Source: Ignisphaera sp. (GTDB taxonomy: Archaea > Thermoproteota > Thermoprotei_A > Sulfolobales > Ignisphaeraceae). From it: a stretch of DNA of 38,247 nucleotides. Positions 4,753 to 27,277 of the stretch are shown one piece after another; position 1 is the first letter of the stretch, and each line of letters starts with the position of its first letter. The position numbers were made by a program, and so were the translations under genes. The DNA lies in assembly GCA_028275825.1 (NCBI GenBank), contig JAPWTX010000014.1, positions 1 to 38,247 on the forward strand, read 5' to 3'. The notes below the pieces were generated by a model. It did no database searches. It was not told the origin of the DNA and saw nothing but the letters and a program-made list of their open reading frames with translations.

Positions 4753-5448
4753 CTAGCTCATGTCCAACGCTTTTTTAAGTTCTTTCACAAGTTCTTTAGA
4801 TACCCTTCCATTTCTACCACCCATGCATACAGCAGTTCTCACCCCTATCACATCAAACCCCAGCTCTTTTAGCATCCCCATGTAACTCTTTTTAATGCCT
4901 CCAGCCACTGCTACCAACAATCCACAGTTCTTTGCTTTCACAACAAATTTCTGTAAGTAGCTTTTTTGGAGAAGCTCTGGAGTTGTGTAAGAGCCTTTAA
5001 TGAGTGTATCAATCATAACTCCGTGGGCACCAAATCTTGTTGCATAGTCAATGAGTTGCAAGGGCTCTACAGAATTATGTGCTGCGTAATCAGCATAGCC
5101 TACTAAAACCACCCTGGCTTTTGAGGTATTCTCAACAACTTCCCTCACAATCCCCTCAACATCTTCCAGGCTTCCAGAGGCTATCCCAACCTTCACGTAG
5201 TTTACAATGGCATCTAAAGCCGATGCTATATAGCCTATTTCAGGGGTGTACCTATGGATATCCCCTATAGCAACACTACACTCCCTTAAACCCTTAACAG
5301 CCTTTGCAACCTCCTTAACAACACCTATTCTTGGAAGACCAAGACTACCTGAAGCAGGATCCTTAACATCTATAATATCTGCACCACCATCTAGAGCCTC
5401 TACAACCTCACTCAAATCCTTCACAGAGACGAGTAGCTTAGGAGACAT
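4753..5448 (-). CDS. mfnB: (5-formylfuran-3-yl)methyl phosphate synthase MfnB
   Basis: This 231-residue TIM-barrel protein matches MfnB (formerly DUF556), which condenses two glyceraldehyde-3-phosphate molecules to the furan precursor of methanofuran. The N-terminal GGADIIDVKDPASGSLG motif carries Asp27 and Lys29, at the positions of Asp25/Lys27 in the Methanocaldococcus jannaschii enzyme. YVKVG holds Lys86 (cf. Lys85), and MIDTLIKG holds Asp147 and Lys151 (cf. Asp151/Lys155). All catalytic residues known for the family therefore appear present. Its start overlaps the end of the MfnD-like gene by 11 bp, indicating cotranscription. Finding it beside mtrH and an mfnD-like gene supports a methanofuran/tetrahydromethanopterin C1 pathway. 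Confidence 0.88.
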   Translation of the reverse strand: MSPKLLVSVKDLSEVVEALDGGADIIDVKDPASGSLGLPRIGVVKEVAKAVKGLRECSVAIGDIHRYTPEIGYIASALDAIVNYVKVGIASGSLEDVEGIVREVVENTSKARVVLVGYADYAAHNSVEPLQLIDYATRFGAHGVMIDTLIKGSYTTPELLQKSYLQKFVVKAKNCGLLVAVAGGIKKSYMGMLKELGFDVIGVRTAVCMGGRNGRVSKELVKELKKALDMS

Positions 5449-6427
5449 GGGTACGAGCCTCTGTCACAAGCACTGCACCAAGGTCATATACAAGATTCTT
5501 CACAAAGCTTTTAACTCTATCTAAAGCCTGTAAAGGGTTTTTCACCTCACCTACAACAATAACCTTCTCCGAATATGGAAACACAATAATGTCTTCACTC
5601 AACTCTGCAAAAGGTGTAAAACCTCTCTCAGCTTTTACATAGTATGAGTACCCTGTTACCACATCCCCAGCATATGTAACAGCATCGCTGAGCAATGCAT
5701 TCTCTACAATGCCTTGAGACAGTTTTTGAAAGAGCTTAGCTAGAGAAACAATAGCTGTTGTTGGTCTCGGATTAACCTCTACAACAAATGGTTCTCCACC
5801 GCTCCACACAACATCAACACCAACAAAGCCGCGAAGCCCTGGAATACACATCTTCAGCTTACTAATAATAGCCCTGCCCGAGTCTCTAAACACATTGCTT
5901 CTCAAAGGCGTTAGACCTCCGAAGAACCTCAGCTTCCCATCCATGGAGCTTATGAGCTGTAGATTTGCTGAATAAAGTAATGATTCATCGCTACCGTAAA
6001 AAGCAAGCACACTTCCATGAACCCCCTCTACAAATCTTTGCACAACAACCTCATGTTCCGAAGAACACTCTGCAACACCTTGCACAACTCTATTCAATTC
6101 ACTAGGGCTCCTAATCACCTCAACACATGCTGCACCTGTTAACAGAGTTGGCTTTACCACTACAGGTAAAGACATTTCCTCCCCAACCACATCACTATAA
6201 ACATTAACGAGCCTTGTATCAGGTGTTGAAATGCCACACTCTCTAAGAACTTGAATAGCTGTATACTTATTCGAAAGCACCTCTATTAGATGTGGCGAGG
6301 GCTGCAAAAGCTCTGCATGAAGAGTTCTAGTAATCTCTACAAGTTCTTTTGGAGGGGCTACTACAACAGCATAGTCAAAATCTTTTGAAAGCCTTTCTAA
6401 ATTGTCTATGCAGTTCTGAGGATCCAC
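5438..6427 (-). CDS. mfnD: ATP-grasp ligase, MfnD-like (main C-terminal part of a frameshifted gene)
   Basis: The 329 residues form an ATP-grasp ligase body: SNKYTAIQVLRECGISTPDT, LPVVVKPTLLTGA (ATP-binding Lys), VVVQRFVEGVHGS, then FFGGLTPLRS, RGFVGVDVVW and FVVEVNPRPTTAIVSL (Mg-binding Glu and Asn). This resembles MfnD, tyramine-L-glutamate ligase of methanofuran biosynthesis, or a close COG1821-type ligase; the mfnB overlap favours MfnD. The GTG at 6427 is only a formal start. The same frame is open upstream, and the missing N-terminal domain lies in another frame at 6433-6621. Whether the piece is translated by reinitiation, by slippage, or not at all cannot be decided here. Confidence 0.72.
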   Translation of the reverse strand: MDPQNCIDNLERLSKDFDYAVVVAPPKELVEITRTLHAELLQPSPHLIEVLSNKYTAIQVLRECGISTPDTRLVNVYSDVVGEEMSLPVVVKPTLLTGAACVEVIRSPSELNRVVQGVAECSSEHEVVVQRFVEGVHGSVLAFYGSDESLLYSANLQLISSMDGKLRFFGGLTPLRSNVFRDSGRAIISKLKMCIPGLRGFVGVDVVWSGGEPFVVEVNPRPTTAIVSLAKLFQKLSQGIVENALLSDAVTYAGDVVTGYSYYVKAERGFTPFAELSEDIIVFPYSEKVIVVGEVKNPLQALDRVKSFVKNLVYDLGAVLVTEARTHVS

Positions 6428-6432
6428 CTCAA

Positions 6433-6621
6433 CTATGCTAGCTGGAAAAAACTGTAACCAAGGTCACTACTCACAGAAATATTTACATCAAGACCTGCAC
6501 TAGTTAAGAAGTTGCTAAGGGCATGCACCATTGCATAACCTTCAACAAGTATATCCCTGTAGAGCTCTGCTACCTCTCTTCTAAAGCACGTAACTAGATA
6601 CTCAACTACCAATACTCTCAT
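6433..6621 (-). CDS. N-terminal piece of the MfnD-like ATP-grasp protein
   Basis: This 62-codon frame (MRVLVVEYLVTCF, then GYAMVHALSNFLTSAG and SVSSDLGYSFF) looks like the first half of the pre-ATP-grasp domain seen at the start of MfnD-like ligases (hydrophobic strand, VEY, EG.AM...L..D). It terminates at TAG 6433-6435. If one base is added to the T6 run (A6 at 6446-6451 on the plus strand), the reading passes directly into the frame of the downstream piece as SFFPASIVEVDPQNCIDNL. The two pieces are therefore one gene of about 395 codons broken by a single-base difference. Confidence 0.65.
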   Translation of the reverse strand: MRVLVVEYLVTCFRREVAELYRDILVEGYAMVHALSNFLTSAGLDVNISVSSDLGYSFFQLA

Positions 6622-6650
6622 CGGATTCAGCCCTTAACCATATCCATGTT

Positions 6651-6668
6651 GATCTATAAACATAGATC
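6651..6668 (-). promoter_or_regulatory. Palindrome overlapping a TATA-like element upstream of the mfnD-like gene
   Basis: GATCTAT and ATAGATC form a perfect 7-bp inverted repeat around AAAC. On the minus strand this contains GTTTATAG, a TATA-like sequence about 33 bases before the ATG at 6621. It may be the promoter of the mfnD-mfnB pair and a binding site for a repressor. mtrH ends 57 bp further upstream, so readthrough from mtrH is also possible. Confidence 0.35.
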
Positions 6669-6725
6669 CACACCCAATACTAATAACCATGCTTGCAAAG
6701 CATTTGGAAGGAACTTCACCAGAAT

Positions 6726-7604
6726 CTACAGCTGAATTAGATTCTCTTTTCTCCTAGCCAGATACTTGTATGCAGTATACACTGTGTAGACAGCTGGAAA
6801 TATCTCTTTAGCAACTTCTATAGGTCCATAGAGCAGGAAATCCGCTCCCAGCGCGATTGACATAGTGTTCGATGTTAGCTCACATGCTTTATACCCTTCA
6901 GCACCAAACCTTTCCTTAAATGCTTTCCTCTGAGAGGATACAGCATTGTGTGCTCCCATACCAGCTGGCAAGCCATACCTAGCCTTAACCTCTATTAGCG
7001 CTTTACAAGCTGCTGAAAGACTCGGTATATCGATTACGAAGGTATCTACAAGGAGCTTTTCAATGCCATAGGTACTCGCCTTTGAGAGCACTGTTTCAAG
7101 GGCTTTGAGCCTCGCATCTACATCTATAACCCTGTCCGTGTAGAGAAGTGCCACAACAGCCTTAATTTCGTATTCCTGCAGAAGCTTGTACTCATCATCC
7201 TTAGACTTAGCTGTGACTGAATTATATGCAACCCTACTCAAAAGCCCTGCCTCCTTAGCAAAATGAAAACCGGCCTTAGCAACTTCTATAGCTGGAGAGT
7301 CTATGAATATAGGTAGCTTTGTTGTATTGGCAACAAACTCAAGGTATCTAGCCATAGCCTCAGGACTCTCAGCAGTAACATCGATAACTGCAGGTATTCT
7401 AGTCTTAGATGAAACATCCTCCACAGCCTTAATAAGCTCCTCCGCCTTACTCCTATCAAAATCACCCCTCTTAGGATCAGAAACAACTTTGTGACCATGA
7501 TAAAACATTGTACCTACCAAAACAGGCGGATTTTCAAAAGCCTGCCCCCCAATCTTCACACCACCAATTTCAAAAACCTTTTGCTGAACTCTATACATAA
7601 ACAT
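6726..7604 (-). CDS. mtrH: Tetrahydromethanopterin S-methyltransferase subunit H (MtrH-like)
   Basis: The 292-residue TIM-barrel protein matches MtrH along its length. Visible motifs are VFEIGGVKIGGQ near the start, ENPPVLVGTMFYHGHKVVSD (family: PTVL.GTIFY..HKIV.D), GDFDRSKAEEL, PAVIDVTAESPEAMARY, PIFIDSP, and ACELTSNTMSIALGADFLLYGP near the C-terminus. In methanogens MtrH moves the methyl group of methyl-tetrahydromethanopterin to the corrinoid of MtrA. No other Mtr subunit is in the window, so this is a stand-alone MtrH that may serve a different corrinoid acceptor. Two Met codons (7604 and 7598) are possible starts. A TATA-like element lies about 40-50 bases upstream. mfnD-like and mfnB genes follow on the same strand. 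Confidence 0.88.
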   Translation of the reverse strand: MFMYRVQQKVFEIGGVKIGGQAFENPPVLVGTMFYHGHKVVSDPKRGDFDRSKAEELIKAVEDVSSKTRIPAVIDVTAESPEAMARYLEFVANTTKLPIFIDSPAIEVAKAGFHFAKEAGLLSRVAYNSVTAKSKDDEYKLLQEYEIKAVVALLYTDRVIDVDARLKALETVLSKASTYGIEKLLVDTFVIDIPSLSAACKALIEVKARYGLPAGMGAHNAVSSQRKAFKERFGAEGYKACELTSNTMSIALGADFLLYGPIEVAKEIFPAVYTVYTAYKYLARRKENLIQL

Positions 7605-7873: not shown

Positions 7874-8137
7874 TTAGAGTGGTGAGAGCTTTATGTAAAA
7901 AATCTCCTTTTCTACATCTTTACAATACTTTGCAATGCTTTCGCTGAGTTTTGCAGACATTGTACATGGTATTATGACTTCTGAGCCTTTGCTCAGAACT
8001 TTAGCGAATTCAGCGGGAACTTCGCTTATTGGTATCTCTCCAATTCCACTACATATTGCAATATGTGTCAGGAAGTGTCTATATGTTTGAATGTCTGGAG
8101 GTTCGACCTTGCATAAACTGATCCTAGCTTTCAACAA
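7874..8137 (-). CDS. Small protein at the end of the hydrogenase operon, unknown family
   Basis: The 87 residues begin with a TTG codon inside the last codons of the hydrogenase small-subunit gene (14-bp overlap), which argues for translational coupling. The sequence has three spaced cysteines (in SLCKVE, AICSGI and IIPCTM), a fourth in KYCKDV, and a short amphipathic middle part. It has no membrane segment and no recognisable domain. Its position as last gene of the operon suggests an assembly or accessory protein of the hydrogenase, perhaps taking the place of HycH-like factors. That is inference only. Confidence 0.55.
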   Translation of the reverse strand: MLKARISLCKVEPPDIQTYRHFLTHIAICSGIGEIPISEVPAEFAKVLSKGSEVIIPCTMSAKLSESIAKYCKDVEKEIFYIKLSPL

Positions 8138-8612
8138 CTTTTACAACCTTTGAAACCTTCTGTTTTACATAGCCTAGTGCTAAGAGCAGGCCATATATTA
8201 TAGCCTCTGGCCTAGCTGGACAGCCAGGGACATAAACTACTTTGTCAATTTCAACTCCTTGTTGTTTCAAGACTCCTTGGAACTTTTCAAAGCCCCCTAT
8301 TGTTGAGTACGTGTTCCACCAAATTCCCCCTCCAACAGCGCACGAACCTATTGCAACAACTATTCTTGGCCTTGGCACAGCTTTCAAAGTCTTTACAACC
8401 TTTGGCAAAGCCTCCCTCGTTACTGGACCTGTAAATAAAACCACGTCAGCATGCCTTGGAGATGCAACGAGCTTTACCCCAAACCTCTCAGCATCAAAAA
8501 ATGGTGTTAAAGCATCGAGTATCTCAATATCGCATGCATTGCAAGAACCGCTATTCAAGTGATATACCCAGGGGCTTCTCCTAACGCCCCTAAGCCTCTC
8601 CTCTAATTTCAT
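8124..8612 (-). CDS. mbhJ: Membrane-bound [NiFe] hydrogenase small subunit (MbhJ/NuoB-like)
   Basis: This 162-residue NuoB-like protein carries the electron-relay [4Fe-4S] cluster next to the Ni-Fe site. The four expected cysteines are in GSCNACDIE (Cys24, Cys27), IGSCAVGGG (Cys91) and PGCPARPEA (Cys131). The PGCPARPE motif with the short length is typical of group 4 hydrogenases and complex I. The ATG overlaps the stop of the preceding ferredoxin-like gene by 4 bp. In the cell it would sit on the cytoplasmic arm, joining the large subunit to the polyferredoxin subunit. Confidence 0.92.
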   Translation of the reverse strand: MKLEERLRGVRRSPWVYHLNSGSCNACDIEILDALTPFFDAERFGVKLVASPRHADVVLFTGPVTREALPKVVKTLKAVPRPRIVVAIGSCAVGGGIWWNTYSTIGGFEKFQGVLKQQGVEIDKVVYVPGCPARPEAIIYGLLLALGYVKQKVSKVVKVVES

Positions 8613-9130: not shown

Positions 9131-10766
9131 ACCTCCTACCCTCAAATAAACTTGCAAATCTTCTGAAGCCAGACCTCACATCACGTATGACCACTGCTCT
9201 GTCTGTGCAAGAGAAGCACGGATCAATGCTAGCAATTGTTAGAAATGCATCTGCTAAAGGTGTGTTTCTAAGCATTATCTTTAACGCTGGGATGTTTTGA
9301 TATGTTGGTGCTCTAACTCTCCATCTATAAGGCCTTCCATGCCCTGTTATGATGAAGTGTACATCCTCTCCCCTGGGAGCCTCAACAGCTCCCACAGCTT
9401 TTCTAAATGATGGGATTTCATAGGACTCCACAGCTATAGACCCCCTGGGCAACGCATCTAGAAGTTGCTCAACTATGCTAATGCTCTCAAAAACCTCATC
9501 AACTCTAACTAAAAGCCTAGCCAAGTTGTCGCCTTCGCTATAGACAGGCACCTTAAATGAGGCAAGCCTATATGCAAAATATGGGTAATCCTTCCTAACA
9601 TCTCTCCTAAGTCCCGAACCCCTTGCTGTAGGACCCACTACACTTAAAGCCCTCGCATCATCTTTAGGCAAAACACCTGTACCCGTAGCCCTCTTCACTA
9701 TTTCAGGTACAGATGTGAAGACCTCTACAAACCTCTTAAACTCCTCTCTAACATTCCTCAAAACATCTAACGCCTTCTTCTTCTTAGACTCATCTATATC
9801 CCTTCTAACACCACCAACAATGTTGATTCCATACGTTTTTCTAGACCCTGTCAAAAGCTCTGCCAGTACCATTATAGGCTCTCTTATTCTCCATATATGC
9901 ATGAAGCCAGCATCGTACCCTAGAATGTGTGCTGCTACTCCGAGCCATAGGAGGTGGCTATGTATTCTCTCAATCTCTAGCACTATAGATCTTATGAATT
10001 GTGCTCTTTCTGGCACCTCTATCTTAGCAGCTCTTTCAACTGTAAGCACATAGCATGAAGAGTGAACAAAGCCACATATACCACATATTCTCTCGGCTAG
10101 AAACGGAATGGTTTTGTATGTAAATCTCGGAGACTCGGCAAGCTTCTCAATACCTCTATGCACATGAAATCCTCTGTAAAAAACATCTACAACCCTCTCA
10201 CCTTCAACATAAAGCTCGAAGTACTCTGGCTCATGAAGTATTGGGTGGTAGGGACCAACAGGAAGCCCAACTTCACTTGGAAGCTCCTTGCCAAAATTCT
10301 CAACACTGCTCGGAGGTCTATAATCGTATGGCACATCCTTTCTCAACGGATATACAGCATTGGGCCAGTCCTGAGGAAGAACAAGCCTCGGTTTTGACTC
10401 ATGACCCAATATATGCAATCCCAGCATATCTCGTGCCTCCAGTTCACACCACTCAGCTGCAGGAACCTCACTAGCTATCGATGGAAGCGCCTCGCCCTCG
10501 AGGCTTGAAATCCTTAAAACAACATCTATACCCTTCTCATCAAGTCCAAATATGTGGTACACAGCAAATCTGCTATTTATGCTCCTCTCATCCACGCCTG
10601 CACAAGTCTTTAAAAATGCGCCAGCGTTGTAAAGCCACTTAGCGAATTCTTTCACTCTCTCCTTCGGGATTTCAACAAATACAGCCGTGTCAGTGATAGT
10701 CTCTACCACACCCCCAAACTCCACTACTTTACCCTCAATCTCCTTTACAACATCTTTCATACTCAT
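9117..10766 (-). CDS. [NiFe] hydrogenase large subunit fused to a NuoC-type domain (MbhK+MbhL / HycE-like)
   Basis: The 549 residues consist of an N-terminal NuoC-like domain (about 1-150, with WCELEARDMLG and PQDWP.A.YPLRKD) and a NuoD-like catalytic domain. The Ni-binding cysteines are intact: ERICGICGFVHSSC (Cys228/Cys231) and IDPCFSCTDR (about 514-523). This marks a real hydrogenase and not the Mbs/Mbx sulfur reductase, where the ligands are incomplete. About 26 residues follow the DPCxxCxxR motif, fitting a C-terminal tail to be removed by a maturation protease. None is encoded in this window. The NuoC-NuoD fusion is HycE-like, whereas Pyrococcus Mbh keeps separate K and L subunits. The ATG overlaps the mbhM-like gene by 4 bp. 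Confidence 0.93.
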   Translation of the reverse strand: MSMKDVVKEIEGKVVEFGGVVETITDTAVFVEIPKERVKEFAKWLYNAGAFLKTCAGVDERSINSRFAVYHIFGLDEKGIDVVLRISSLEGEALPSIASEVPAAEWCELEARDMLGLHILGHESKPRLVLPQDWPNAVYPLRKDVPYDYRPPSSVENFGKELPSEVGLPVGPYHPILHEPEYFELYVEGERVVDVFYRGFHVHRGIEKLAESPRFTYKTIPFLAERICGICGFVHSSCYVLTVERAAKIEVPERAQFIRSIVLEIERIHSHLLWLGVAAHILGYDAGFMHIWRIREPIMVLAELLTGSRKTYGINIVGGVRRDIDESKKKKALDVLRNVREEFKRFVEVFTSVPEIVKRATGTGVLPKDDARALSVVGPTARGSGLRRDVRKDYPYFAYRLASFKVPVYSEGDNLARLLVRVDEVFESISIVEQLLDALPRGSIAVESYEIPSFRKAVGAVEAPRGEDVHFIITGHGRPYRWRVRAPTYQNIPALKIMLRNTPLADAFLTIASIDPCFSCTDRAVVIRDVRSGFRRFASLFEGRRYANK

Positions 10767-11635
10767 ACCAGCCTCACTACAAATATCATTGCTACAAACA
10801 TCAAAAATATCAGTATAAGCATTACTTTGAGAAGAGTTATAGGCCCTACATCAACTCTTGTCCTACCAAGCATAACACTAACAACTCCAAGCACTATCCA
10901 TGTAATGGGTGTTAGTAGCAACGTTATTAACGATGCAAACCCTGTACCAGCTATGCCAATGAGTTTAAGAAGAGTATAGCTAAGAATTTCAGCTAGCACA
11001 TATCTCCTAATATGCAAAGAATACGATGTAGTTGCGAGTAGAGGTCCTGAAAGCTCTATATACACACCACTTGCAATTTCAGGCTCAGCCTCAGCAATGT
11101 CAAATGGTGTTCTACCGCTGAGAACATAGCATGAGAGAGCAGCTATGCAGAAAAGCAGCATCTTTATTATTATCGGTTCTTCAACCAGCAGCATTATTGC
11201 TAATGAGGATAGGAAAAAGCCTTCTACAGCTAGCGTGACGTAGAATTCTCTGAAGGCTCCTATAGAAGAGAATGGGTTATCCAAAGATATTGCTCTAATC
11301 AATGAAAAGGCTGAGGATATCGATAGAAATGTTATGAGCAGTGCGATGACCCACTCCAATTGGGGGGTTATGAGAAATATCTGGAGTATGACCACTGTTA
11401 TCGATACGAATAAAAGCTCGAGTATTGTTATCAAGGCCATGCCATAACTCGTTAATACAAGTTCTTTACTAAACAGCTTAATGAGGTCAAACCAGCTTTG
11501 CAAAAAGCTTCTGGCAAGACCTAGGGGACCTATTCTTGATTGTATTGCCGCTTTAACCTTTCTCTCAATACTATCATATATAGGGGCTACGAGGAAAGGT
11601 ATAGCTGTTATTAGTGCAAGGCTAGTGTAGTCCAA
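10763..11635 (-). CDS. mbhM: Membrane anchor subunit MbhM / NuoH-like
   Basis: This 290-residue membrane protein has about eight hydrophobic helices. The NuoH/HycD signature is present: an early loop with RKVKAAIQSRIGPLG, the middle SSIGAFREF, and AEAEPEIASGVYIELSGP (the acidic loop that lines the quinone-like cavity in complex I). It anchors the hydrogenase arm to the ion-pumping membrane arm. It begins with TTG, overlapping the preceding small gene by 14 bp, and ends in an ATGA overlap with the large-subunit gene. Confidence 0.9.
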   Translation of the reverse strand: MDYTSLALITAIPFLVAPIYDSIERKVKAAIQSRIGPLGLARSFLQSWFDLIKLFSKELVLTSYGMALITILELLFVSITVVILQIFLITPQLEWVIALLITFLSISSAFSLIRAISLDNPFSSIGAFREFYVTLAVEGFFLSSLAIMLLVEEPIIIKMLLFCIAALSCYVLSGRTPFDIAEAEPEIASGVYIELSGPLLATTSYSLHIRRYVLAEILSYTLLKLIGIAGTGFASLITLLLTPITWIVLGVVSVMLGRTRVDVGPITLLKVMLILIFLMFVAMIFVVRLV

Positions 11636-11957
11636 TTATTATCACCATAAAGAGCAGTGCCATTGTTAAAGCTACTCCAGCCCAGAGAGAGGCAAGTAGC
11701 AGTGATTTTTCAAACGCTCGTTGAATACTCTGTATACCTAAAGCAAGTTTTTGCTCCCCCCTAGCCACATTTTCTTCAATGCTGTGAAAGTAGAAAACCT
11801 TTCTAATTTTCTCAAAATTTGAAAGGTAGGACATTATCTGGGGAGGTCTAAACTTAACATCGATCTTAATTGTATAGATAGCTTTAGATGTAACAGGTTT
11901 TCTTTCCGGCTTACTCTCTTCTTCACTATCTTTATTGCCAGACTTTCTCTGGCTCAC
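11622..11957 (-). CDS. Small membrane subunit, probably MbhI-like
   Basis: The 111-residue protein has a highly charged, likely disordered N-terminus (SGNKDSEEESKPERKPVTSK). A short beta-like and helical part with IMSYLSNFEKIRKVFYFHSI follows, then a long helix and one clear C-terminal membrane helix (LLASLWAGVALTMALLFMVI). Its place between the second antiporter-like subunit and the NuoH-like subunit matches MbhI, which joins the two membrane modules in Pyrococcus Mbh. Sequence identity to MbhI is not obvious by eye, so the name is positional. It starts with GTG in a GTGA overlap with the preceding gene. Confidence 0.6.
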   Translation of the reverse strand: MSQRKSGNKDSEEESKPERKPVTSKAIYTIKIDVKFRPPQIMSYLSNFEKIRKVFYFHSIEENVARGEQKLALGIQSIQRAFEKSLLLASLWAGVALTMALLFMVIIIGLH

Positions 11958-13456
11958 GGCCTTGCACCACCAAGCCAGCTTTCATCAACTCTAAACACTT
12001 TTTGACTTCTATAGATTGTATAGAGTATTATTGCTAGGAAAGCTGCTGAGAGCGCTACAATGAATAGTAGAATCTGTGCATAGACCACTAGTTGTGTAAG
12101 TGTAATATAAGCTGTGATAGCAATTGAGATAATTATTGTTGTGAGTATAGGTAATGTTAGCTGCTTTAGCTCTTCCAAACCTCCACGAAGAGGTACTCTA
12201 ATAGCTGATGAACCAAAGTGTGTCAAGAGATATTTAGCTCCATAGCCTACGCTAAGAGCTATTTCAATTGCTATAACTACAAGCAACACCACAGCAGAAA
12301 AGGCTGTGCCAAGTTTACTTGTTATGGAGAGTATTGTTGTGAACTTAGCTATAAAGCCTGGTAATGGAGGTGCCCCTATTAAGGATAGTATTGCCAGTAA
12401 AGCAGTAGTGCTCTCAAGTGAATAGAGTCGCGATATATAGCCTAAGCTTCCTATGTCTCTTGTATGGGCAATTATTTCAACAACTCCAGAGTCCATGAAT
12501 AGAGAGGCCTTGAAGAAAGCATGTGCCACAATATAGAATAGCGCTGCCTGTAGAGCCTCTACAGAGTTAAATCCAATGTAAAATCCTAGCAGGATAGCCA
12601 TAACACTTGTATGCGATATTGTGCTATAAGCTAAAATCCTCTTGATGTCTACCTGTGCAAGTGCTTGAAGACCACCATATACAGCAGTTATGCTACCGCA
12701 CACCATCAGCATATAGGCATACATTTTGACATCAATTGGATACAAAGTTAATAGGTATAATCCATATATTCCCATCTTAACCATGAGACCTGAGAGCATG
12801 GCTGAAGCTGGTGCAGGTGCTAGTGAATGTGCATCTGGAAGCCAGAAGTGCAGAGGTGCTACAGCTGCCTTAGCCAAGAAGCCTATCATACAAAGTATTG
12901 TGAGTATTGATGAGCCTTGTATAGCTGGGGCAATACTAGCTATATTTACTGAAAAAGCTTTTTCAACACCTGTTAGAGCAACTAGAGTAAATAGTGTTAT
13001 GTCTGCGGGAACCATTGAAACTAAGAGATATCTTACCCCAGCTTCAAGCGCTTCTCTAGCACCTTGAATAAGCCAGTCGAAAGCTATTAAGACAAATCCT
13101 ATGAGCTCTGCTATAATCCAGCATGTAACGAACTCTATTAAGTATCTAGATACAAAGGTGAAGGTTATTGAAAGTGAGAATGCGTCTATGAGTAGCTGTA
13201 GATATGGAAAACCATATTTGAATTTAACATAATTTGTGGTGTAGATAGTTACTAAAGCAGCTATTATACTACTAGATACTGCCAGCACCCTGGCAAACAG
13301 GTTTTCTATTGCTATAGAGGAGTAGAGTGAGATGAGTGCAAATCCGAGTACACGAAGCGAAACACCTAGTCTCTTATCAAACACCTTTGTTGTTCCTCCA
13401 AGGAGCACTAAAAGTGTTGAAAAAACGTAGACAAGGTATCTATATAGATCCTCCAA
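11954..13456 (-). CDS. Second antiporter-like membrane subunit (NuoN/MrpD family)
   Basis: The 500-residue protein is a 14-helix proton-pumping subunit of the NuoL/M/N-MrpA/D type. The core motifs include AAVAPLHFWLPDAHSLAPAP (Lys and His of the channel), SGLMVKMGIYGLYL, DIKRILAYSTISHTS and FKASLFMDSG. It is distinct from the MrpD-like subunit at 15015-16580, so the complex has two ion-translocating modules. The start is a TTG at 13456 with GGAGGATC around it, overlapping the polyferredoxin gene by 17 bp. A GTGA overlap links it to the next gene. Confidence 0.85.
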   Translation of the reverse strand: MEDLYRYLVYVFSTLLVLLGGTTKVFDKRLGVSLRVLGFALISLYSSIAIENLFARVLAVSSSIIAALVTIYTTNYVKFKYGFPYLQLLIDAFSLSITFTFVSRYLIEFVTCWIIAELIGFVLIAFDWLIQGAREALEAGVRYLLVSMVPADITLFTLVALTGVEKAFSVNIASIAPAIQGSSILTILCMIGFLAKAAVAPLHFWLPDAHSLAPAPASAMLSGLMVKMGIYGLYLLTLYPIDVKMYAYMLMVCGSITAVYGGLQALAQVDIKRILAYSTISHTSVMAILLGFYIGFNSVEALQAALFYIVAHAFFKASLFMDSGVVEIIAHTRDIGSLGYISRLYSLESTTALLAILSLIGAPPLPGFIAKFTTILSITSKLGTAFSAVVLLVVIAIEIALSVGYGAKYLLTHFGSSAIRVPLRGGLEELKQLTLPILTTIIISIAITAYITLTQLVVYAQILLFIVALSAAFLAIILYTIYRSQKVFRVDESWLGGARP

Positions 13457-13946
13457 AGCTCATCACTGCTTTCATAATTCTCGTTAAAGCCCTTTTCTTA
13501 GCTTCATCAAAAACTGCTTGCGGCACCCCAATAACTATCGCTTTGGTGGGGCACATAGCTACACATGCAGGCTCTAAGCCATCTCCTCTAAGCTGTTTAC
13601 ACAAATCGCATTTGGTTGAAGTTTTTGTAATGATGCTTAGCTCAGGTATTCCATAGGGACAGGCATAGAGGCAAGCCATACAGCCTATGCATCTAGATCC
13701 ATCAACATACACAGCTCCACTATCATCTCTTCTCATAGCCTTTGTAGGGCAAACCTCTACACACGGTGCTTTTGCGCAGTGAAAGCATGATATGGGTTTT
13801 ACTAGTCCTCCACCTATATCATAAAGTTTTATGAAGGAAACCCCTTCGTGTATAAAATCACATACAGCTGAGCACACCCCACAACCAATGCACTTGTTGT
13901 AGTCTATCCATCTTAGTAGAGTTGGGTTTCCAGATGATTTATCCAT
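13440..13946 (-). CDS. Four-cluster ferredoxin-like electron carrier (CooF/HycB/HydN type)
   Basis: The 168 residues hold four cysteine groups typical of 4x[4Fe-4S] electron carriers: CIGCGVCSAVC, CFHCAKAPCVEVCP, CIGCMACLYACPYGIP, and CDLCKQ...ACVAMCP. Such subunits shuttle electrons between a dehydrogenase and a hydrogenase (CooF with CO dehydrogenase, HycB with formate dehydrogenase). No catalytic formate or CO dehydrogenase is encoded here. Instead, the flavoprotein gene lies directly upstream (3-bp gap), so the pair may form the electron-entry module. It is cytoplasmic, with no signal peptide. Confidence 0.85.
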   Translation of the reverse strand: MDKSSGNPTLLRWIDYNKCIGCGVCSAVCDFIHEGVSFIKLYDIGGGLVKPISCFHCAKAPCVEVCPTKAMRRDDSGAVYVDGSRCIGCMACLYACPYGIPELSIITKTSTKCDLCKQLRGDGLEPACVAMCPTKAIVIGVPQAVFDEAKKRALTRIMKAVMSFGGSI

Positions 13947-13949
13947 GTT

Positions 13950-14993
13950 TTAAACACCTCTAAGAAACCTCTCCACATCCCTCGCGGTATAGAGTCCATG
14001 TTTACAGGCTTCGCCAAGTTTTGTTGGGCCTGTGAGTACATCTCCTGCTACAAACATGTTAGTGTTTCCAAGTCTATACCCTTTAGAAATTATGTAGCCT
14101 CTTTCATCAAGGAATTGCTTAAACTCTGCACACTCCTGAGTAAAGGGAGGTGTTGACACTTCTCCTATAGCGGGAATAACTAGATCTGCTTCTATAGTGA
14201 ATTCACTGCCTGGTATAGGTATGGGTGCGGGTCTGCCTGTTTTATCTGGAGGACCTAATCTCATTCTCTGAAACTCTACAGCCTTTACAAATCCATTCTC
14301 AACTATTATCTTTGTTGGTGCTGCTAGCTCAAGCCATTTCACGCCTTTGGCTATGAGGTCATCTACATAATATTCGCCAGCAGGAGCCTCTTTCTTAGTT
14401 CTTCTGTAAATTAAATAAACTTCCTCAGCACCAAGCCTCAAAGCCTCTTCAGCTGCATCAACAGCACTAAGACCTGCACCAACTACGACAACTCTTTTTG
14501 GCTTTGTCCAAAACTCTTCAGCAAGACCATGCTCAGCTAGTCTAAGCTTGTATAGAAAGGTGAGGGCATCCACAACACCCTTAGCATCCTCACCTGGCAC
14601 GCCAAGCTTTCTAGATCTCCAAGTGCCAGTAGTTATAACCACAGCGCTATACTCTTTCACAATATTCCGCAAATCCACAACATGCTTAACAAAGTCATCG
14701 CCTTCATCATGCCTCTCGCCACACATCACCTTAGTATTTAGATATAATTTTACCCCAAAGCTTTTCACCAAGTCCTCAACACCTTCATCAATATTATTAT
14801 AGGGTATTCTATATGATGGTATAGCTAGCGCTGCAAGTCCTCCAGCTACTGGCTGCTTATCATATACATCAACTTCAAACCCTTTGCAAGTAAGGTAGCC
14901 AGCTGCTGAGAGCCCTGCAATACCTGCACCTATAATTGCCACTCTCTTTCCCATTGAAGTTGGTTTTGATTTGCAGAGAAATGCAAATTTCAT
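13950..14993 (-). CDS. NAD(P)H-dependent FAD oxidoreductase, glutamate synthase small subunit-like
   Basis: This is a GltD/NfnB-like two-dinucleotide-fold flavoprotein. The FAD site is GKRVAIIGAGIAGLSAAGYL near the N-terminus with GGLAALAIPSYRIP. The NAD(P)H site is VVVVGAGLSAVDAAEEALRLG followed by YRRTKKEAPA, whose arginines favour NADPH. The second FAD motif is NTNMFVAGDVLTGPTKLGEA. The N-terminal Fe-S domain of true GltD is missing; the adjacent CooF-like protein could supply clusters. The frame opens at a GTG (15002), but GAGGTGATC spaced before the ATG at 14993 makes that the better start. Location inside the hydrogenase operon suggests coupling of NAD(P)H to ferredoxin or H2. Confidence 0.85.
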   Translation of the reverse strand: MKFAFLCKSKPTSMGKRVAIIGAGIAGLSAAGYLTCKGFEVDVYDKQPVAGGLAALAIPSYRIPYNNIDEGVEDLVKSFGVKLYLNTKVMCGERHDEGDDFVKHVVDLRNIVKEYSAVVITTGTWRSRKLGVPGEDAKGVVDALTFLYKLRLAEHGLAEEFWTKPKRVVVVGAGLSAVDAAEEALRLGAEEVYLIYRRTKKEAPAGEYYVDDLIAKGVKWLELAAPTKIIVENGFVKAVEFQRMRLGPPDKTGRPAPIPIPGSEFTIEADLVIPAIGEVSTPPFTQECAEFKQFLDERGYIISKGYRLGNTNMFVAGDVLTGPTKLGEACKHGLYTARDVERFLRGV

Positions 14994-15014
14994 TATGATC
15001 ACCTCTCACAGCAT

Positions 15015-16580
15015 TTATGATCCAGAGCTTAAGAACGCATAATAAGCTTTATACCCTTCAATAACATTGTATCCAATTTCGTTTATAAATTTTCTAGCAC
15101 TTGGGCTAAGCATATAAAGCGCACCAATAGCAATTAAAATTACTACGCATAGAGCTATGGTTATGTCTGCAAGCATGCTATTTCTGAGTCTAGGATCTTC
15201 CCTAATCTTCTCCACAGGCTTAAGGGTGCTGAACAACATTTTGAAGTAGCCTATAGCAGATATGCCTGTGGCTAGCACTAGTATAACAACTCCATATATC
15301 TTTCCTGTATCGAGAAATGCCTTAAATATTAAATACTTGCTCCAAAAGCCTAATAACGGTGGTACACCAATCAAATTGAGCATAGCTATTATTATGCCTG
15401 CCAATGCCACTCTATACTTTCTTAAAACTCCAAGAGTATTTATAGATCTGCCCACAGCCACTATTGCTATGCCTGCGCTGTAGAACAGTAGTGATTCTGC
15501 AAAGGAGTTAGATATTGTATGAAGAATGGCAGCAGATATGCCTTCTCCACTGTCTAGTGAAAGAGCCATGAATATGAGTCCTAAATGGCTAATTGTGCTA
15601 TATGCTATAAACTTTTTAACATCCTCTTGAAGTAGTAAAAGAAATACTCCTATGAAGACAGATATTGCCCCCAGTATCTGAAATATTTCAAGTGTATATG
15701 ATCTAAACTGCAAAGCGATTGAGCCTTGGCCAAAGAATGTGTAAAACATTCTTATAGCTCCATAAACCCCTATCAAATCTATTACACCAACGAAAACTGC
15801 TGAAATGGGTGTGGGAGCCTCTGGCACAGCATCAGGAAGCCAGAAGTAGTTTGGGAATATAGCAGCTTTAAAGGTCCAGGTCCAGCTAGCTAAAGCTATC
15901 ATCATTGCCGATGCTATCGCCACATTCCCAACAACACCTCCACTAAACTGCGTTACAGCATTAAGATCCCTCGCCTTGAGCGCTATATCAGCCATAGTAA
16001 GGGTTCCAAAAGATGCATATGCTACGAATGCTGATAATAGGTAGAAGCTTGAGGAGATTATGCCTGTGAATGCAAATCTTATTGCTGCCTCGATGGACTT
16101 TGGGCTGTCTCTAAAGTAAGCAACGAGAGAGTATGATGAGAGGGAGAGCACTTCGAGCATTACAAAGAAGTTAAAGTAATCACCTGTATATAGACATCCC
16201 AGAGAGCCTGCTAAGAGCGTTAGAAAGAGTGTGTAGTATAGGTATGTTCTTGGAAAATTCATGTACCAAGCACTATATATGCCTGACAAAAGCATTATTG
16301 ATGTTGCTAAAAGTCCGAGAAGAGCGTTGAGATTATCAATCTCATATGCTATTCCCAGTGGCGCTGGATATCCGCCGAAGAAGTATAGTTGAATACCTTC
16401 ATCCACCACTTTATGCATTATATAAGCCGAGATTGCAAACACTATAGCTGTATTGACAATTGCAAACACTTTAAAGAACTTGTTACTCCTGATCACCAGT
16501 CCTAAAGCTGCTGTTAAAAATGCTACTGCTATTAGGTAAAGAGGGGCTATACCTGTTAAGGGGTCTTGCAGAGTGCTCAA
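15015..16580 (-). CDS. mbhH: Antiporter subunit MrpD-like (MbhH)
   Basis: This 521-residue, 14-helix NuoL/M/N-MrpD family subunit has the channel motifs AIFPNYFWLPDAVPEAPTPI, AVFVGVIDLIGVYG, DVKKFIAYSTISHLG and SFAESLLFYSAG. It belongs to the Mrp-type Na+/H+ antiporter module of the hydrogenase, using the energy of electron transfer to move ions. It starts with TTG 6 bp after the MrpE gene. The next gene in the operon is the flavoprotein, so the Mrp module ends here. Confidence 0.88.
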   Translation of the reverse strand: MSTLQDPLTGIAPLYLIAVAFLTAALGLVIRSNKFFKVFAIVNTAIVFAISAYIMHKVVDEGIQLYFFGGYPAPLGIAYEIDNLNALLGLLATSIMLLSGIYSAWYMNFPRTYLYYTLFLTLLAGSLGCLYTGDYFNFFVMLEVLSLSSYSLVAYFRDSPKSIEAAIRFAFTGIISSSFYLLSAFVAYASFGTLTMADIALKARDLNAVTQFSGGVVGNVAIASAMMIALASWTWTFKAAIFPNYFWLPDAVPEAPTPISAVFVGVIDLIGVYGAIRMFYTFFGQGSIALQFRSYTLEIFQILGAISVFIGVFLLLLQEDVKKFIAYSTISHLGLIFMALSLDSGEGISAAILHTISNSFAESLLFYSAGIAIVAVGRSINTLGVLRKYRVALAGIIIAMLNLIGVPPLLGFWSKYLIFKAFLDTGKIYGVVILVLATGISAIGYFKMLFSTLKPVEKIREDPRLRNSMLADITIALCVVILIAIGALYMLSPSARKFINEIGYNVIEGYKAYYAFLSSGS

Positions 16581-16586
16581 CTATAG

Positions 16587-17093
16587 TCACCCAAAGATTT
16601 TTGCAGCATATTCTTCAAACACTTTTGAAATCTCCTCACGAGCTTTTTCAGGCTCAATTGTTGTAGCGTAGATCCAGTGCACATAGAATAGGTGTCTCTT
16701 TTCATCTACATCAACAACACAAGTACCAGGAGTGTTGGTTATGGAGCCTGCTATTAGTGTCATTCCATAATCTGTTTTAACACTGTAAGGAACTTTAACT
16801 ATAGCTGGTTTTATATCGAGTTTGCGGCTAAGAACTATCTTAATTACTTGCTTATGTGCTTTATACTCCTCTATAATCATGTAGCGGAAGTAGTACAGCA
16901 ACAGGTATGCAAAGCTCTTGAGATCATGAGCACCGAGATTTCTTTGTATTAGAAATGGTGTTGACAATGCTGCTAGCAATGCTGAGGCTATAAATCCAAG
17001 TGTGAGGCTGAATTCTGTTGTTGATGCTGTAAACATTATGTAGAAAGCGTATATATATAGAAATACTGCTATGAACCTTGTTAACTTCTTCAT
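16587..17093 (-). CDS. Mrp antiporter subunit E (MbhA-like)
   Basis: The 168 residues carry two N-terminal membrane helices and a soluble tail with the MrpE signature TLIAGSITNTPGTCVVDVDE followed by FYVHWI. MrpE is the small peripheral subunit of Na+/H+ antiporters. In Pyrococcus Mbh the equivalent gene (mbhA) comes first; here it sits between MrpC and MrpD, an altered order. The ATG overlaps the stop of the MrpC gene by 4 bp. Confidence 0.88.
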   Translation of the reverse strand: MKKLTRFIAVFLYIYAFYIMFTASTTEFSLTLGFIASALLAALSTPFLIQRNLGAHDLKSFAYLLLYYFRYMIIEEYKAHKQVIKIVLSRKLDIKPAIVKVPYSVKTDYGMTLIAGSITNTPGTCVVDVDEKRHLFYVHWIYATTIEPEKAREEISKVFEEYAAKIFG

Positions 17094-17482
17094 ATCTTCA
17101 CCCTCCTCGTACTTGTTGAACCATAGTATTTATAGTAAAGCATTATCAATCCTACTAAGAACATGTTAACTGCAAGACCTATTACTACTGCTGTGAGTAC
17201 AAGGGCTTGTGGCACCGGATCCACGGCTTCACTAACAAATCTCTTTAAATCCTCTACACTCTGAGGTGGTGAAGGCATTACGGCTATGGATGGGTATCCT
17301 AAGGGGGTTCTTCTAAACCCAATTAGTATAGCGAAACTGTTTACACTATCTGAGAATATTGTTAAGGCTATGAACTTCTTTACTAGTGAAGGCTTTGCAA
17401 AAACTCCGTAAAGCGATATGGCTATGTTTATTATGAAGGAAATCATTATTGTTGTGAGTAAGAATGTTGTTGCACTACTCAT
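17090..17482 (-). CDS. Mrp antiporter subunit C (MbhG / NuoK-like)
   Basis: This is a three-helix NuoK/MrpC-like protein of about 130 residues: an N-terminal helix (LLTTIMISFIINIAISLYGV), then DSVNSFAILIGFRRTPLGYP (the conserved N.....G), then DPVPQALVLTAVVIGLA (the family motif DP.PQALVLTAIVI). It lines an ion path in the Mrp module. The frame opens at a TTG (17497), but the ATG at 17482 in an 8-bp overlap with the previous gene is the probable start. Confidence 0.88.
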   Translation of the reverse strand: MSSATTFLLTTIMISFIINIAISLYGVFAKPSLVKKFIALTIFSDSVNSFAILIGFRRTPLGYPSIAVMPSPPQSVEDLKRFVSEAVDPVPQALVLTAVVIGLAVNMFLVGLIMLYYKYYGSTSTRRVKI

Positions 17483-18284
17483 GCTCTCCACCCCCAATTA
17501 TAGCTTTCAGCTCCTCTTCTCTCAATAGCAATAAGACCACTCCTAGGGTTAAGCCACCTATTACAGCTATGGATTCTGAGAGATTGAAGAAGAATAGTAT
17601 TCCTGCAAGTGGCCTGTCAAGAAACCATGAGGGCATGGAATACTGGGAGTTTATCCTAGGCATGTTTTGAAATATATATGCGTATCCCCCTAGCAGTACA
17701 GCTTTAACTAGTAGATACACTGAGACCACAACTATTGCGAGCAATCCTATGCATCTAATTGCAAGCAATCTGTTTAGTGTGAGTTTCTTCTGCTGGAAGA
17801 ACTCTATGGAAAACGCTATTGCAAGCAATGTCATTGCCACAGTCATGAATGACCCTCCCTGGAATCCCCCTCCTGGGGATAAGTGGCCGTGAAACGCTAG
17901 TGAAGCTCCTGCAACTAGTATGAGTGGAGCGACAAGCTTTGTCGAAGTTTTGACAATTATTGAAAGACCCTTTGAGCTCACCCCCTGAACCACATTTGCA
18001 CCTCTAAACAGTGCTATAAGACCTACTATTGCTATGAATAGTACTGATGTTTCAAAGTAAGTGTCTAACCCTCTGAAATCCCATACAATGGCTGTTACAG
18101 CCTCTGGTGACATAGCACTGTAAACTATTTTCCATGGATTATACGTGTAGTTTAGAAATGATACTGCAAGTGGTCTCAGATTAAGTGTTGCTATTGGTCC
18201 GAGACCCCCATAGACAATCAAATATGAAAGCAATAGGGCGAGCATTGCCATGGAGACTCCTATTGCTATGTCAGAGAGTCTCAT
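17475..18284 (-). CDS. Fused MbhE- and MbhF (MrpB)-like membrane subunit
   Basis: The 269 residues join two subunits that are separate in Pyrococcus Mbh. The first third has an N-terminal helix and WDFRGLDTYFETSVLFIAIV, the MbhE/MrpA-C-terminal signature. The rest has LAFHGHLSPGGGFQGGSFM, the MrpB/MnhB signature, followed by helices and FFNLSESIAVIGGLTLGV. It belongs to the ion-translocating Mrp module. The ATG overlaps the MbhD-like gene by 4 bp. Confidence 0.87.
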   Translation of the reverse strand: MRLSDIAIGVSMAMLALLLSYLIVYGGLGPIATLNLRPLAVSFLNYTYNPWKIVYSAMSPEAVTAIVWDFRGLDTYFETSVLFIAIVGLIALFRGANVVQGVSSKGLSIIVKTSTKLVAPLILVAGASLAFHGHLSPGGGFQGGSFMTVAMTLLAIAFSIEFFQQKKLTLNRLLAIRCIGLLAIVVVSVYLLVKAVLLGGYAYIFQNMPRINSQYSMPSWFLDRPLAGILFFFNLSESIAVIGGLTLGVVLLLLREEELKAIIGGGEHE

Positions 18285-18526
18285 TCTTCATACCTCTCAG
18301 TCTTTTTAATCAATATTATTGTGATTAGAGGCAGTATACCTACTGATACAGGGAGATATACAAGCACTATGTCAGGAGCCATGAGGAGGTAATATATTAG
18401 AGCATAGCATGTGCTTTGCAAAGCTGAAAACAATGTAGCTATTAGCATGTCTCTCTCCTGTACTGCAAGCCATGTTGCTACAATGCTTATTAGAGCAGCT
18501 ACAAACGCCATGATTACAGGTAGCAT
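18281..18526 (-). CDS. MbhD-like membrane subunit (MrpA C-terminal part)
   Basis: This small protein has three hydrophobic helices. The segment AVQERDMLIATLFSALQSTCYALIYY with the following APDIVLVYL matches MbhD/DUF4040 (family: L....AVI.FS..SL..A..Y..L.APDVA). The frame extends upstream to 18568. The ATG at 18526, one base after the MrpG stop and behind GAGGTGA, gives the usual family length and is preferred. Part of the Mrp module. Confidence 0.82.
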   Translation of the reverse strand: MLPVIMAFVAALISIVATWLAVQERDMLIATLFSALQSTCYALIYYLLMAPDIVLVYLPVSVGILPLITIILIKKTERYEE

Positions 18527-18527
18527 C

Positions 18528-18893
18528 TCACTCACTACTATCACCTCTCTTCTCAGCCAATGCATCATATGTTATTGGTTGGAGTGGTGCTGCTCTTGCT
18601 CTGTAAGCTGCTCTCGCAAGTGCGTGAGAACCTGCTTGTGACAGTATCATGGTTACAATGCTTGTAGTAAAAGCAACACCAGCTAAAATGAATCTCGTTT
18701 CTCCCAAGGGCTCATAGCCTATGGCTAGCAAGGCTGCTCCAAGCATTGGAACTACAGCGCCACCTATAGCCCCAACTGTTGCGGCATGGAGTCTTGTGAA
18801 GAAGTTGGGAAGCCTTATTAAACCTATTGCTGCTACAAAATCGCAGAAAACCCCTATTGCTATTAGTGTTAGCCCAGCTGATGCAAGCACCAT
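18528..18893 (-). CDS. Mrp antiporter subunit G (MbhC)
   Basis: This MrpG-like protein has three hydrophobic helices. The family motif is visible as GVFCDFVAAIGLIRLPNFFTRLHAAT, followed by GAIGGAVVPMLGAAL. The frame is open to 18944, inside the MrpF gene, but the GGAGGTG at the end of the MrpF gene points to a start just after its stop, at ATG 18893 (or TTG 18902). The C-terminus (ALARAAYRARAAPLQPITYD) is typical of MrpG as well. Confidence 0.85.
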   Translation of the reverse strand: MVLASAGLTLIAIGVFCDFVAAIGLIRLPNFFTRLHAATVGAIGGAVVPMLGAALLAIGYEPLGETRFILAGVAFTTSIVTMILSQAGSHALARAAYRARAAPLQPITYDALAEKRGDSSE

Positions 18894-18903
18894 GTCTATC
18901 AAT

Positions 18904-19188
18904 TTAGCCGCCCACCTCCTTAGCTTCCAAGTACTTTGCAACATATATGTCTAAAGCGTAGATCCATAGTGCTAGAGAAAGAGCGCATACAGCCATCATT
19001 GGAGAGTTTAGATATATGGAGAGAATTAGCATGAAGGCTGCCAAGTCATAGCCAAGAGAATCCAAGGCAAGCACTCTATCAGGAATTGTAGGACCCTTTA
19101 GAACTCTCACAATGTATAGAGCGAAGGAAATCAGATAAAGCGCTAATAGTGTCGTAAGTACCGTCAAAATAATGTCATAGGGAGTCAA
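18904..19188 (-). CDS. Mrp antiporter subunit F (MbhB), first gene of the hydrogenase operon
   Basis: The 94-residue, three-helix protein has the MrpF signature VLKGPTIPDRVLALDSLGYD and a C-terminal ALSLALWIYALDIYVAKYLE. As first gene it sets the start of an operon running without break to 7874. The start appears to be TTG at 19188 (the nearby ATG at 19192 is out of frame). The palindromes and TATA box upstream are listed separately. Confidence 0.87.
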   Translation of the reverse strand: MTPYDIILTVLTTLLALYLISFALYIVRVLKGPTIPDRVLALDSLGYDLAAFMLILSIYLNSPMMAVCALSLALWIYALDIYVAKYLEAKEVGG

Positions 19189-27267: not shown

Positions 27268-27277
27268 GTGTAGCTGG

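What the first reader, a model, noticed from the sequence alone, without database searches (positions are those of the whole stretch)
4753..7604. MtrH-MfnD-MfnB cluster in a crenarchaeote without other methanogenesis genes in view
A stand-alone MtrH, an MfnD-like ATP-grasp ligase and MfnB with all expected catalytic residues (Asp27, Lys29, Lys86, Asp147, Lys151) lie in a row on one strand. MfnB and MfnD make methanofuran; MtrH handles methyl-tetrahydromethanopterin. In a sugar-using, H2-evolving organism this implies a C1 branch with methanofuran, possibly run for methyl assimilation or methyl disposal through an unknown corrinoid partner. It also sits next to the hydrogenase operon.
Basis: partly seen in the sequence, partly recalled or inferred. 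Interest (0 to 1): 0.75.

Follow-up and report, generated by a model that had tools for sequence, protein, structure and literature searches.

The report
Wood-Ljungdahl methyl-branch genes in Ignisphaera
Three genes beside a hydrogenase in a hot-spring archaeon (Ignisphaera) turn out to be the visible corner of a complete pathway for building acetyl-CoA from CO2 or methyl groups, in a genus usually treated as a simple fermenter and with parts of the pathway swapped for ones that use a different electron carrier in some species.

Summary
In detail: MfnB, an MfnD-like ligase and a stand-alone MtrH lie in a row on the minus strand. One correction is needed: the MfnD ORF is frameshifted and really starts near 6621. 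The same Ignisphaera genome (98% complete) encodes Ftr, a FwdDB fusion, FwdA, FwdC, Mch, an NADP-type MtdB, an MTHFR-fold reductase, complete CODH/ACS with a corrinoid activator, and MttB-type demethylase/corrinoid genes, but no Mcr. That is a complete tetrahydromethanopterin/methanofuran Wood-Ljungdahl pathway without methanogenesis. It is linked to the adjacent ion-pumping hydrogenase: in two other species the hydrogenase operon runs into MtdB-Ftr-Fwd-Mch, and in two more it lies next to Mer/MtrH or CODH/ACS. Two species, including probable I. aggregans, have broken MfnB and lost Mch and CODH/ACS but keep MtrH and the MTHFR-like gene. Two species carry F420-dependent Mer and Mtd where the other seven carry MTHFR-like and MtdB: a cofactor swap within the group. 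H4MPT/methanofuran genes in Ignisphaera were noted in 2016, and archaeal Wood-Ljungdahl plus lone MtrH is known in Bathyarchaeia. New variant of a known kind; direction and substrate untested.

The parts
4753..5448 (-). MfnB, 4-(hydroxymethyl)-2-furancarboxaldehyde phosphate synthase (methanofuran biosynthesis)
   Evidence: PF04476 189.7 bits; five catalytic residues conserved against MJ1099; crenarchaeal MfnB clade 100/100 support
5438..6621 (-). MfnD-like ATP-grasp ligase (probable methanofuran glutamyl ligase), with one frameshift near 6446-6451: downstream part 5438-6427, N-terminal part from ATG 6621 in another frame
   Evidence: PF02655; frameshift and homologous N-terminus; adjacent or near MfnB in most relatives
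6726..7604 (-). Stand-alone MtrH-family methyltransferase (methyl-corrinoid:tetrahydromethanopterin)
   Evidence: PF02007 279.7 bits, NF002142 above cut-off; next to Mer, MTHFR-like, corrinoid-MttB or RACo in relatives
7874..8137 (-). small 87-aa gene at the end of the hydrogenase operon; similar-sized genes in the same place in G001, G003, G007, G008
   Evidence: position; no family hit
8124..8612 (-). hydrogenase small subunit (NuoB/MbhJ-like)
   Evidence: PF01058
8609..9157 (-). 4Fe-4S subunit (HycF/NuoI-like)
   Evidence: PF12838, NF009053 132 bits
9117..10766 (-). [NiFe] hydrogenase large subunit fused to 30-kDa domain; Ni ligands intact
   Evidence: PF00346, PF00329; L1/L2 motifs
10763..19188 (-). 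membrane, antiporter-type and electron-input subunits of the hydrogenase operon (NADHdh, two Proton_antipo_M, MnhB, Fe-S 13440-13946, flavoprotein 13950-15002)
   Evidence: Pfam hits; same operon contiguous with MtdB-Ftr-FwdDB-FwdA-FwdC-Mch in G001 and G003

Best explanation
The three genes belong to a complete, non-methanogenic tetrahydromethanopterin/methanofuran Wood-Ljungdahl pathway of Ignisphaera. MfnB and the MfnD-like ligase make the methanofuran that Fwd and Ftr need. MtrH is the exchange point between methyl-H4MPT and methyl-corrinoid proteins: it brings in methyl groups released by an MttB-type demethylase, and probably also feeds methyl-H4MPT out for methionine. Methyl-H4MPT goes to CODH/ACS to make acetyl-CoA, or is oxidised through the MTHFR-like reductase, MtdB, Mch, Ftr and Fwd to CO2. 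The adjacent membrane hydrogenase balances ferredoxin and H2 and pumps ions. My best guess for the main net direction is reductive: acetyl-CoA/acetate made from CO2 plus methyl groups as a sink or supplement to sugar fermentation. Shown: gene content, catalytic residues, linkage, joint loss. Inferred: direction, substrate, identity of the corrinoid partner. The confidence given is for the pathway and the place of the three genes in it; for the reductive direction alone it is about 0.45.
For: In the window's own genome: Ftr, FwdDB (TIGR03129 514 bits), FwdA (730), FwdC (218), Mch (378) in one operon, over equivalog cut-offs (Ftr was scored on the relative's copy in L066, the own copy lies at the edge of L063 and L127 and was grouped with it); the FwdB cysteine motifs align with 5t5i and the FwdA His/Lys/Asp motifs with 8rja. 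CdhA 1128, CdhC 632, CdhD 328 (TIGR00381) and CdhE 552 bits, all over cut-off, with a RACo/AcsV-like activator. MtdB + MTHFR-like pair on contig C42; MtdB 155 bits to MtdA. MttB 293 bits + MtgC-like corrinoid + permease. Mcr absent in 12/12. Joint loss: Mch, CdhC, MtdB and intact MfnB all missing in G005 and G009. Hydrogenase operon runs into MtdB-Ftr-Fwd-Mch in G001 and G003, and lies next to Mer/MtrH or Cdh in G007 and G008. MtrH lies next to Mer (G007, G008), MTHFR-like (G009), corrinoid-MttB (G061) or RACo (L165). MfnB of Crenarchaea is one clade, 100/100.
Against: No biochemistry. The MfnD copy in this genome is frameshifted (assembly error or real loss not separable). MtrH and the MTHFR-like gene survive in two species that lost the rest, so MtrH has at least one role outside this pathway. 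MttB occurs in only 6 of the 9 pathway-bearing species. MfnA, MfnC, MtrA, acetate-forming enzymes and pterin biosynthesis were not tested. Genes of sugar use in the window point to a heterotroph.
Confidence: 0.82

Rival explanations
1. The pathway runs only in the oxidative direction: methyl groups from quaternary amines (or C1 units from serine/glycine) are oxidised through H4MPT and methanofuran to CO2, and the electrons leave as H2 through the adjacent ion-pumping hydrogenase; CODH/ACS serves to split or assimilate acetyl units.
For: MttB-corrinoid-permease operon in own genome and MtrH divergent to it in G061; hydrogenase operon contiguous with MtdB-Ftr-Fwd-Mch in G001 and G003; redox-active FwdB rather than the hydrolytic FhcB type.
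Against: MttB is missing from three species that keep the whole pathway; gene content cannot fix direction, and complete CODH/ACS with an activator is kept wherever Fwd is kept.
Confidence: 0.25
2. The pathway is mainly anabolic: a supply line of methyl groups for methionine and of C1 units and acetyl-CoA for biosynthesis; MtrH passes methyl groups from methyl-H4MPT to a corrinoid protein for a MetE-core methionine synthase.
For: MtrH and the MTHFR-like gene are retained in G005 and G009 after loss of Mch/Cdh/MtdB; in other families of the order a distant MtrH sits with a corrinoid protein, RACo and a MetE-like gene; a MetE-core-like gene exists in the own genome.
Against: Does not explain the MttB-corrinoid-permease operon or the tie to a large ion-pumping hydrogenase; the Ignisphaera MtrH is only 27-35% identical to the methionine-linked MtrH and is separated by a long branch.
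Confidence: 0.3
3. MtrH here is the methyl-H4MPT:corrinoid iron-sulfur protein methyltransferase of CODH/ACS, an archaeal counterpart of bacterial AcsE, rather than a partner of small corrinoid proteins.
For: Every genome with CODH/ACS has one MtrH of this clade, G012 (81% complete) excepted; weak similarity to the AcsE-type family PRK07535; RACo next to MtrH in L165.
Against: Archaeal CdhDE is reported to take the methyl group from the pterin itself (own knowledge); MtrH is retained where CODH/ACS is lost.
Confidence: 0.2
4. Contamination or chance: the C1 genes come from a methanogen binned into the genome.
For: The genome is a draft in 86 contigs.
Against: 0.2% contamination; the same genes occur in 9 genomes including assemblies in only 9-10 contigs, with crenarchaeal-specific MfnB sequences.
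Confidence: 0.01

Closest known systems
Wood-Ljungdahl pathway and corrinoid-MtrH pair of termite-gut Bathyarchaeia (PMC7886697)
   Same: Complete archaeal pathway without Mcr, stand-alone MtrH with a corrinoid protein, energy-converting [NiFe] hydrogenase, proposed methylotrophic acetogenesis.
   Different: Bathyarchaeia use Mer; here Sulfolobales-order Crenarchaea (Ignisphaera), MTHFR-like + NADP-type MtdB in most species, MttB-type gene present, hydrogenase operon physically joined to the C1 genes in some species.
Non-methanogenic methylotrophy of Culexarchaeia (PMC9723716)
   Same: mtrH together with mttB, corrinoid protein and corrinoid activator; no Mcr; suggested use of quaternary amines.
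   Different: Culexarchaeia encode portions of both folate and H4MPT branches; here the H4MPT/methanofuran branch and CODH/ACS are complete.
H4MPT/methanofuran genes in Ignisphaera noted by Chistoserdova 2016 (PMC5020050)
   Different: No mention found of CODH/ACS, MtrH-MttB, hydrogenase linkage or the F420/NADP swap in the passages read.
MtgABC glycine betaine system (MtgA structures 6sj8/6sjk)
   Same: MtrH-family protein works with a small corrinoid protein and an MttB-family demethylase.
   Different: MtgA uses tetrahydrofolate; the window protein scores 203 bits against an MtgA cut-off of 550, so it is not filed as MtgA.
MtrH of the methanogen Mtr complex (9qtp)
   Same: Same Pfam family and presumed half-reaction.
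   Different: Below the TIGR01114 cut-off and no Mcr; closer to PDB 8z9u_B (289 bits) than to complex MtrH (156 bits).

Membership tests
MtrH family (PF02007 / NF002142) | whole-domain profile match over curated cut-off | tested here: met
   279.7 bits over profile 2-293/299; NF002142 352 vs 287
MtrH of the Mtr complex (TIGR01114) | equivalog cut-off 271.4 bits | tested here: not met
   214.9 bits
MtrH of the Mtr complex (TIGR01114) | presence of MtrA and other Mtr subunits | not tested
   PF04208 not searched; Mcr absent
MtgA (NF047990) | equivalog cut-off 550 bits | tested here: not met
   203 bits
MfnB (PF04476) | profile match and five catalytic residues | tested here: met
   189.7 bits; D27, K29, K86, D147, K151 conserved
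MfnB (NCBIfam equivalog NF002575) | cut-off 304 bits | tested here: not met
   172.9 bits, divergent but alignable end to end
MfnD (NF040722) | equivalog cut-off 400 bits | tested here: not met
   56.7 bits here, 94.1 in the full-length homologue of G003; called MfnD-like by linkage only
Archaeal Wood-Ljungdahl pathway | Fwd, Ftr, Mch | tested here: met
[quoted passage not shown]
   MtdB-type by profile and PDB match; reductase by MTHFR fold, TM 0.70, and mutual exclusion with Mer, identity inferred
Archaeal Wood-Ljungdahl pathway | CODH/ACS (CdhABCDE) | tested here: met
   CdhA, C, D, E over cut-offs in own genome; 174-aa CdhB-sized gene between CdhA and CdhC
Archaeal Wood-Ljungdahl pathway | net CO2 fixation or acetogenesis | not testable with these tools
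   needs labelling
Methanogenesis | methyl-coenzyme M reductase | tested here: not met
   PF02249 absent in 12/12 genomes, controls positive
Group 4 [NiFe] hydrogenase | L1 and L2 nickel-binding motifs plus membrane subunits | tested here: met
   RICGICGFVH, DPCFSCTDR; membrane subunits

The most novel reading that the evidence does not exclude
Within one small group of hyperthermophilic Crenarchaea, a complete H4MPT Wood-Ljungdahl pathway has switched electron carrier: seven species use an NADP-type MtdB and a so far unclassified MTHFR-fold methylene-H4MPT reductase, two use F420-dependent Mtd and Mer, and MtrH plugs methylated amines into it; organisms described as fermenters would be methyl- and CO2-using acetogens tied to an H2-cycling ion pump.
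Probability: 0.5. Interest if true: 0.75.

Novelty: new variant of a known kind. Interest (0 to 1): 0.58.

Why it matters
A complete methanofuran/H4MPT Wood-Ljungdahl pathway without methanogenesis in Sulfolobales-order Crenarchaea bears on how old the pathway is and how archaea outside methanogen groups use it. In PMC8579995 Ignisphaera bins S33 and S23 (also among the present relatives) were read as fermentative heterotrophs. The natural swap of two F420 enzymes for NADP-type ones, with the rest of the pathway constant, gives a directly testable case of redox-carrier replacement and proposes a function for an unclassified reductase family.

Tried and rejected
PDB profile search for the MTHFR-like protein gave only noise; only the predicted fold helped, and many other TIM barrels also match with lower TM (about 0.46-0.63). 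Rejected: chance grouping, methanogenesis, contamination, MtrH as Mtr-complex subunit. A gene cluster near Mch in G008 that looked like a second hydrogenase holds a V-type ATP synthase subunit I. Paper searches for Ignisphaera with formylmethanofuran found nothing, and those with Wood-Ljungdahl gave no paper that describes the pathway in this genus in the passages read. No paper held names PDB entry 8z9u. Not searched: MfnA, MfnC, MtrA, pterin biosynthesis, acetate-forming acetyl-CoA synthetase.
Full report
What is there. The window is one whole contig (C21, 38,247 bases) of a 1.81-Mb draft genome, 98.5% complete, 0.2% contamination. Relative G009 is a single contig of 1,875,953 bases, which I take, from memory of its size, to be I. 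aggregans DSM 17230. MtrH and MfnB are clear family members; the MfnD-like ligase is a member of the ATP-grasp_3 family whose assignment as MfnD rests on linkage. Its ORF is broken: the ~58-residue N-terminus is found in another frame starting at ATG 6621, with the shift near a run of six T at 6446-6451.

The rest of the pathway. In relatives, MfnB is surrounded by MfnE-like, MfnF (TIGR03123 over cut-off), MptN-like, CofE-like, HisA/F-related and MfnD-like genes. In the window's own genome, contig C13 carries Ftr-FwdDB-FwdA-FwdC-Mch in a row, with FdhD and MptN-like beside it. FwdB keeps the Cys in VCHGP and the CPFCG cluster ligands of the tungsten enzyme, and FwdA keeps the His, Lys and Asp motifs, so this is the redox-active dehydrogenase. 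The same contig carries a MinD/CooC-like gene, CdhA, a CdhB-sized gene, CdhC, CdhD, CdhE and a RACo/AcsV-like activator. Contig C42 carries the MTHFR-like gene followed by MtdB. Mcr is absent.

Joint inheritance and loss. Ten genomes carry intact MfnB: eight of the genus, plus G012 and G061. All ten carry Mch (a fragment in G012) and CdhC. G005 and G009 have only pieces of MfnB, and no Mch, CdhC or MtdB, but keep MtrH and the MTHFR-like gene. This agrees with the 2016 remark that some Ignisphaera genomes encode H4MPT/methanofuran functions and some do not (PMC5020050). MfnB of Crenarchaea forms one clade with full support, which speaks for inheritance within Crenarchaea rather than a recent gift from a methanogen. 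Retention of MtrH and the MTHFR-like gene after loss means that MtrH has another job, most simply methyl supply for methionine.

Cofactor swap. Canonical Mer (437 bits, over cut-off) occurs only in G007 and G008, where it is adjacent to MtrH. F420-dependent Mtd (278 bits to 1qv9) sits inside their fwd operon. These two lack MTHFR-like and MtdB; the other seven well-covered pathway genomes have MTHFR-like and MtdB and lack Mer. The MTHFR-like protein has no Pfam or NCBIfam hit; its model (pLDDT 82.7) has its highest TM-score, 0.70, with Thermus MTHFR. Fold plus mutual exclusion make it the likely methylene-H4MPT reductase. In a concatenated tree of Fwd, Mch and Cdh proteins G007 and G008 are sisters beside G001, G003, G004 and G006, so the swap happened inside the group.

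Methyl entry. The own genome has an operon of MtgC-like corrinoid protein, MttB-family demethylase (293 bits) and amino-acid-type permease on C24, and a second corrinoid protein among UroD-type methyltransferase genes on C36. In G061 MtrH is divergent to a corrinoid-MttB pair. MttB occurs in six genomes, all with the full pathway. Elsewhere in the order a distant MtrH (27-35% identity, long branch) sits with corrinoid protein, RACo and a MetE-like gene, a methionine-type arrangement.

Hydrogenase. The neighbouring operon encodes a [NiFe] hydrogenase with intact nickel ligands, two antiporter-like subunits and MnhB. In G001 and G003 it runs directly into MtdB-Ftr-FwdDB-FwdA-FwdC-Mch; in G008 it is flanked by Mer/MtrH on one side and the Cdh operon on the other, and in G007 its two ends lie on contigs with Mer/MtrH and with Cdh. 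Different pathway genes in the same place in different species argue for a functional tie. These loci were fetched because they hold pathway genes, so species in which the hydrogenase lies elsewhere were not counted.

How it most likely works. Methanofuran made by the Mfn genes takes up CO2 at Fwd; Ftr, Mch, MtdB and the MTHFR-like reductase bring it to methyl-H4MPT; CODH/ACS makes acetyl-CoA. MtrH exchanges methyl groups between methyl-H4MPT and corrinoid proteins. The hydrogenase exchanges reduced ferredoxin, H2 and ions. These reactions are known to be reversible in other archaea, so direction is a guess: reductive use as a sink or supplement to sugar fermentation is my first choice; oxidation of methyl groups to CO2 and H2 and a mainly anabolic role are close rivals.

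Compared with what is known. Bathyarchaeia of termite guts have the complete pathway, corrinoid-MtrH and an energy-converting hydrogenase (PMC7886697); Culexarchaeia have mtrH-mttB-corrinoid (PMC9723716). The present case is the same kind in another lineage, with a different pair of redox enzymes in most species and a physical link to the hydrogenase. A 2021 study placed Ignisphaera bins S33 and S23 among fermentative heterotrophs (PMC8579995). I found no paper in the held library that describes the complete pathway in Ignisphaera; papers outside it, among them Adam et al. 2019 which I could not read, may.

Noticed in passing
window 6427-6621: Frameshift in the MfnD-like gene near a poly-T run; cannot tell assembly error from real mutation.
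   Followed up: partly
L025 9284-9884 and L026 9489-9689: MfnB remnants (pseudogene pieces) in G009 (probable I. aggregans) and G005, a record of recent loss.
   Followed up: yes
L025 4050-6576: G009 keeps a divergent FwdDB-like (46% identity) and FwdC-like (37%) pair without FwdA next to it and without Mch; catalytic Cys motif kept, CPFC motif not found. Possible repurposed formate-dehydrogenase-like pair.
   Followed up: partly
L063 10874-11965 and homologues in 9 other loci: Conserved ~360-aa protein with an NTP-transferase-like stretch beside MfnB, fwd or MtrH genes in Ignisphaera and Vulcanisaeta; candidate unknown step of methanofuran or pterin biosynthesis.
   Followed up: partly
L171 (Vulcanisaeta sp. 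JCM 14467): A named, non-MAG Vulcanisaeta strain record carries Ftr-Fwd-Mch with Mfn genes; several genes appear split, probably by sequencing errors.
   Followed up: partly
L069 9994-11007: Second, divergent Mch-like gene (337 aa) in G008, away from the fwd operon.
   Followed up: no
L124 3670-9378 (G000:C36): Corrinoid protein among several UroD/MtaA-type methyltransferase genes: a second possible methyl-donor system, perhaps for O-methyl groups.
   Followed up: no
window 26161-28621: PurP-type (DUF1246/DUF1297) and PurB-type genes next to each other: purine synthesis with free formate, relevant to the C1 budget.
   Followed up: no
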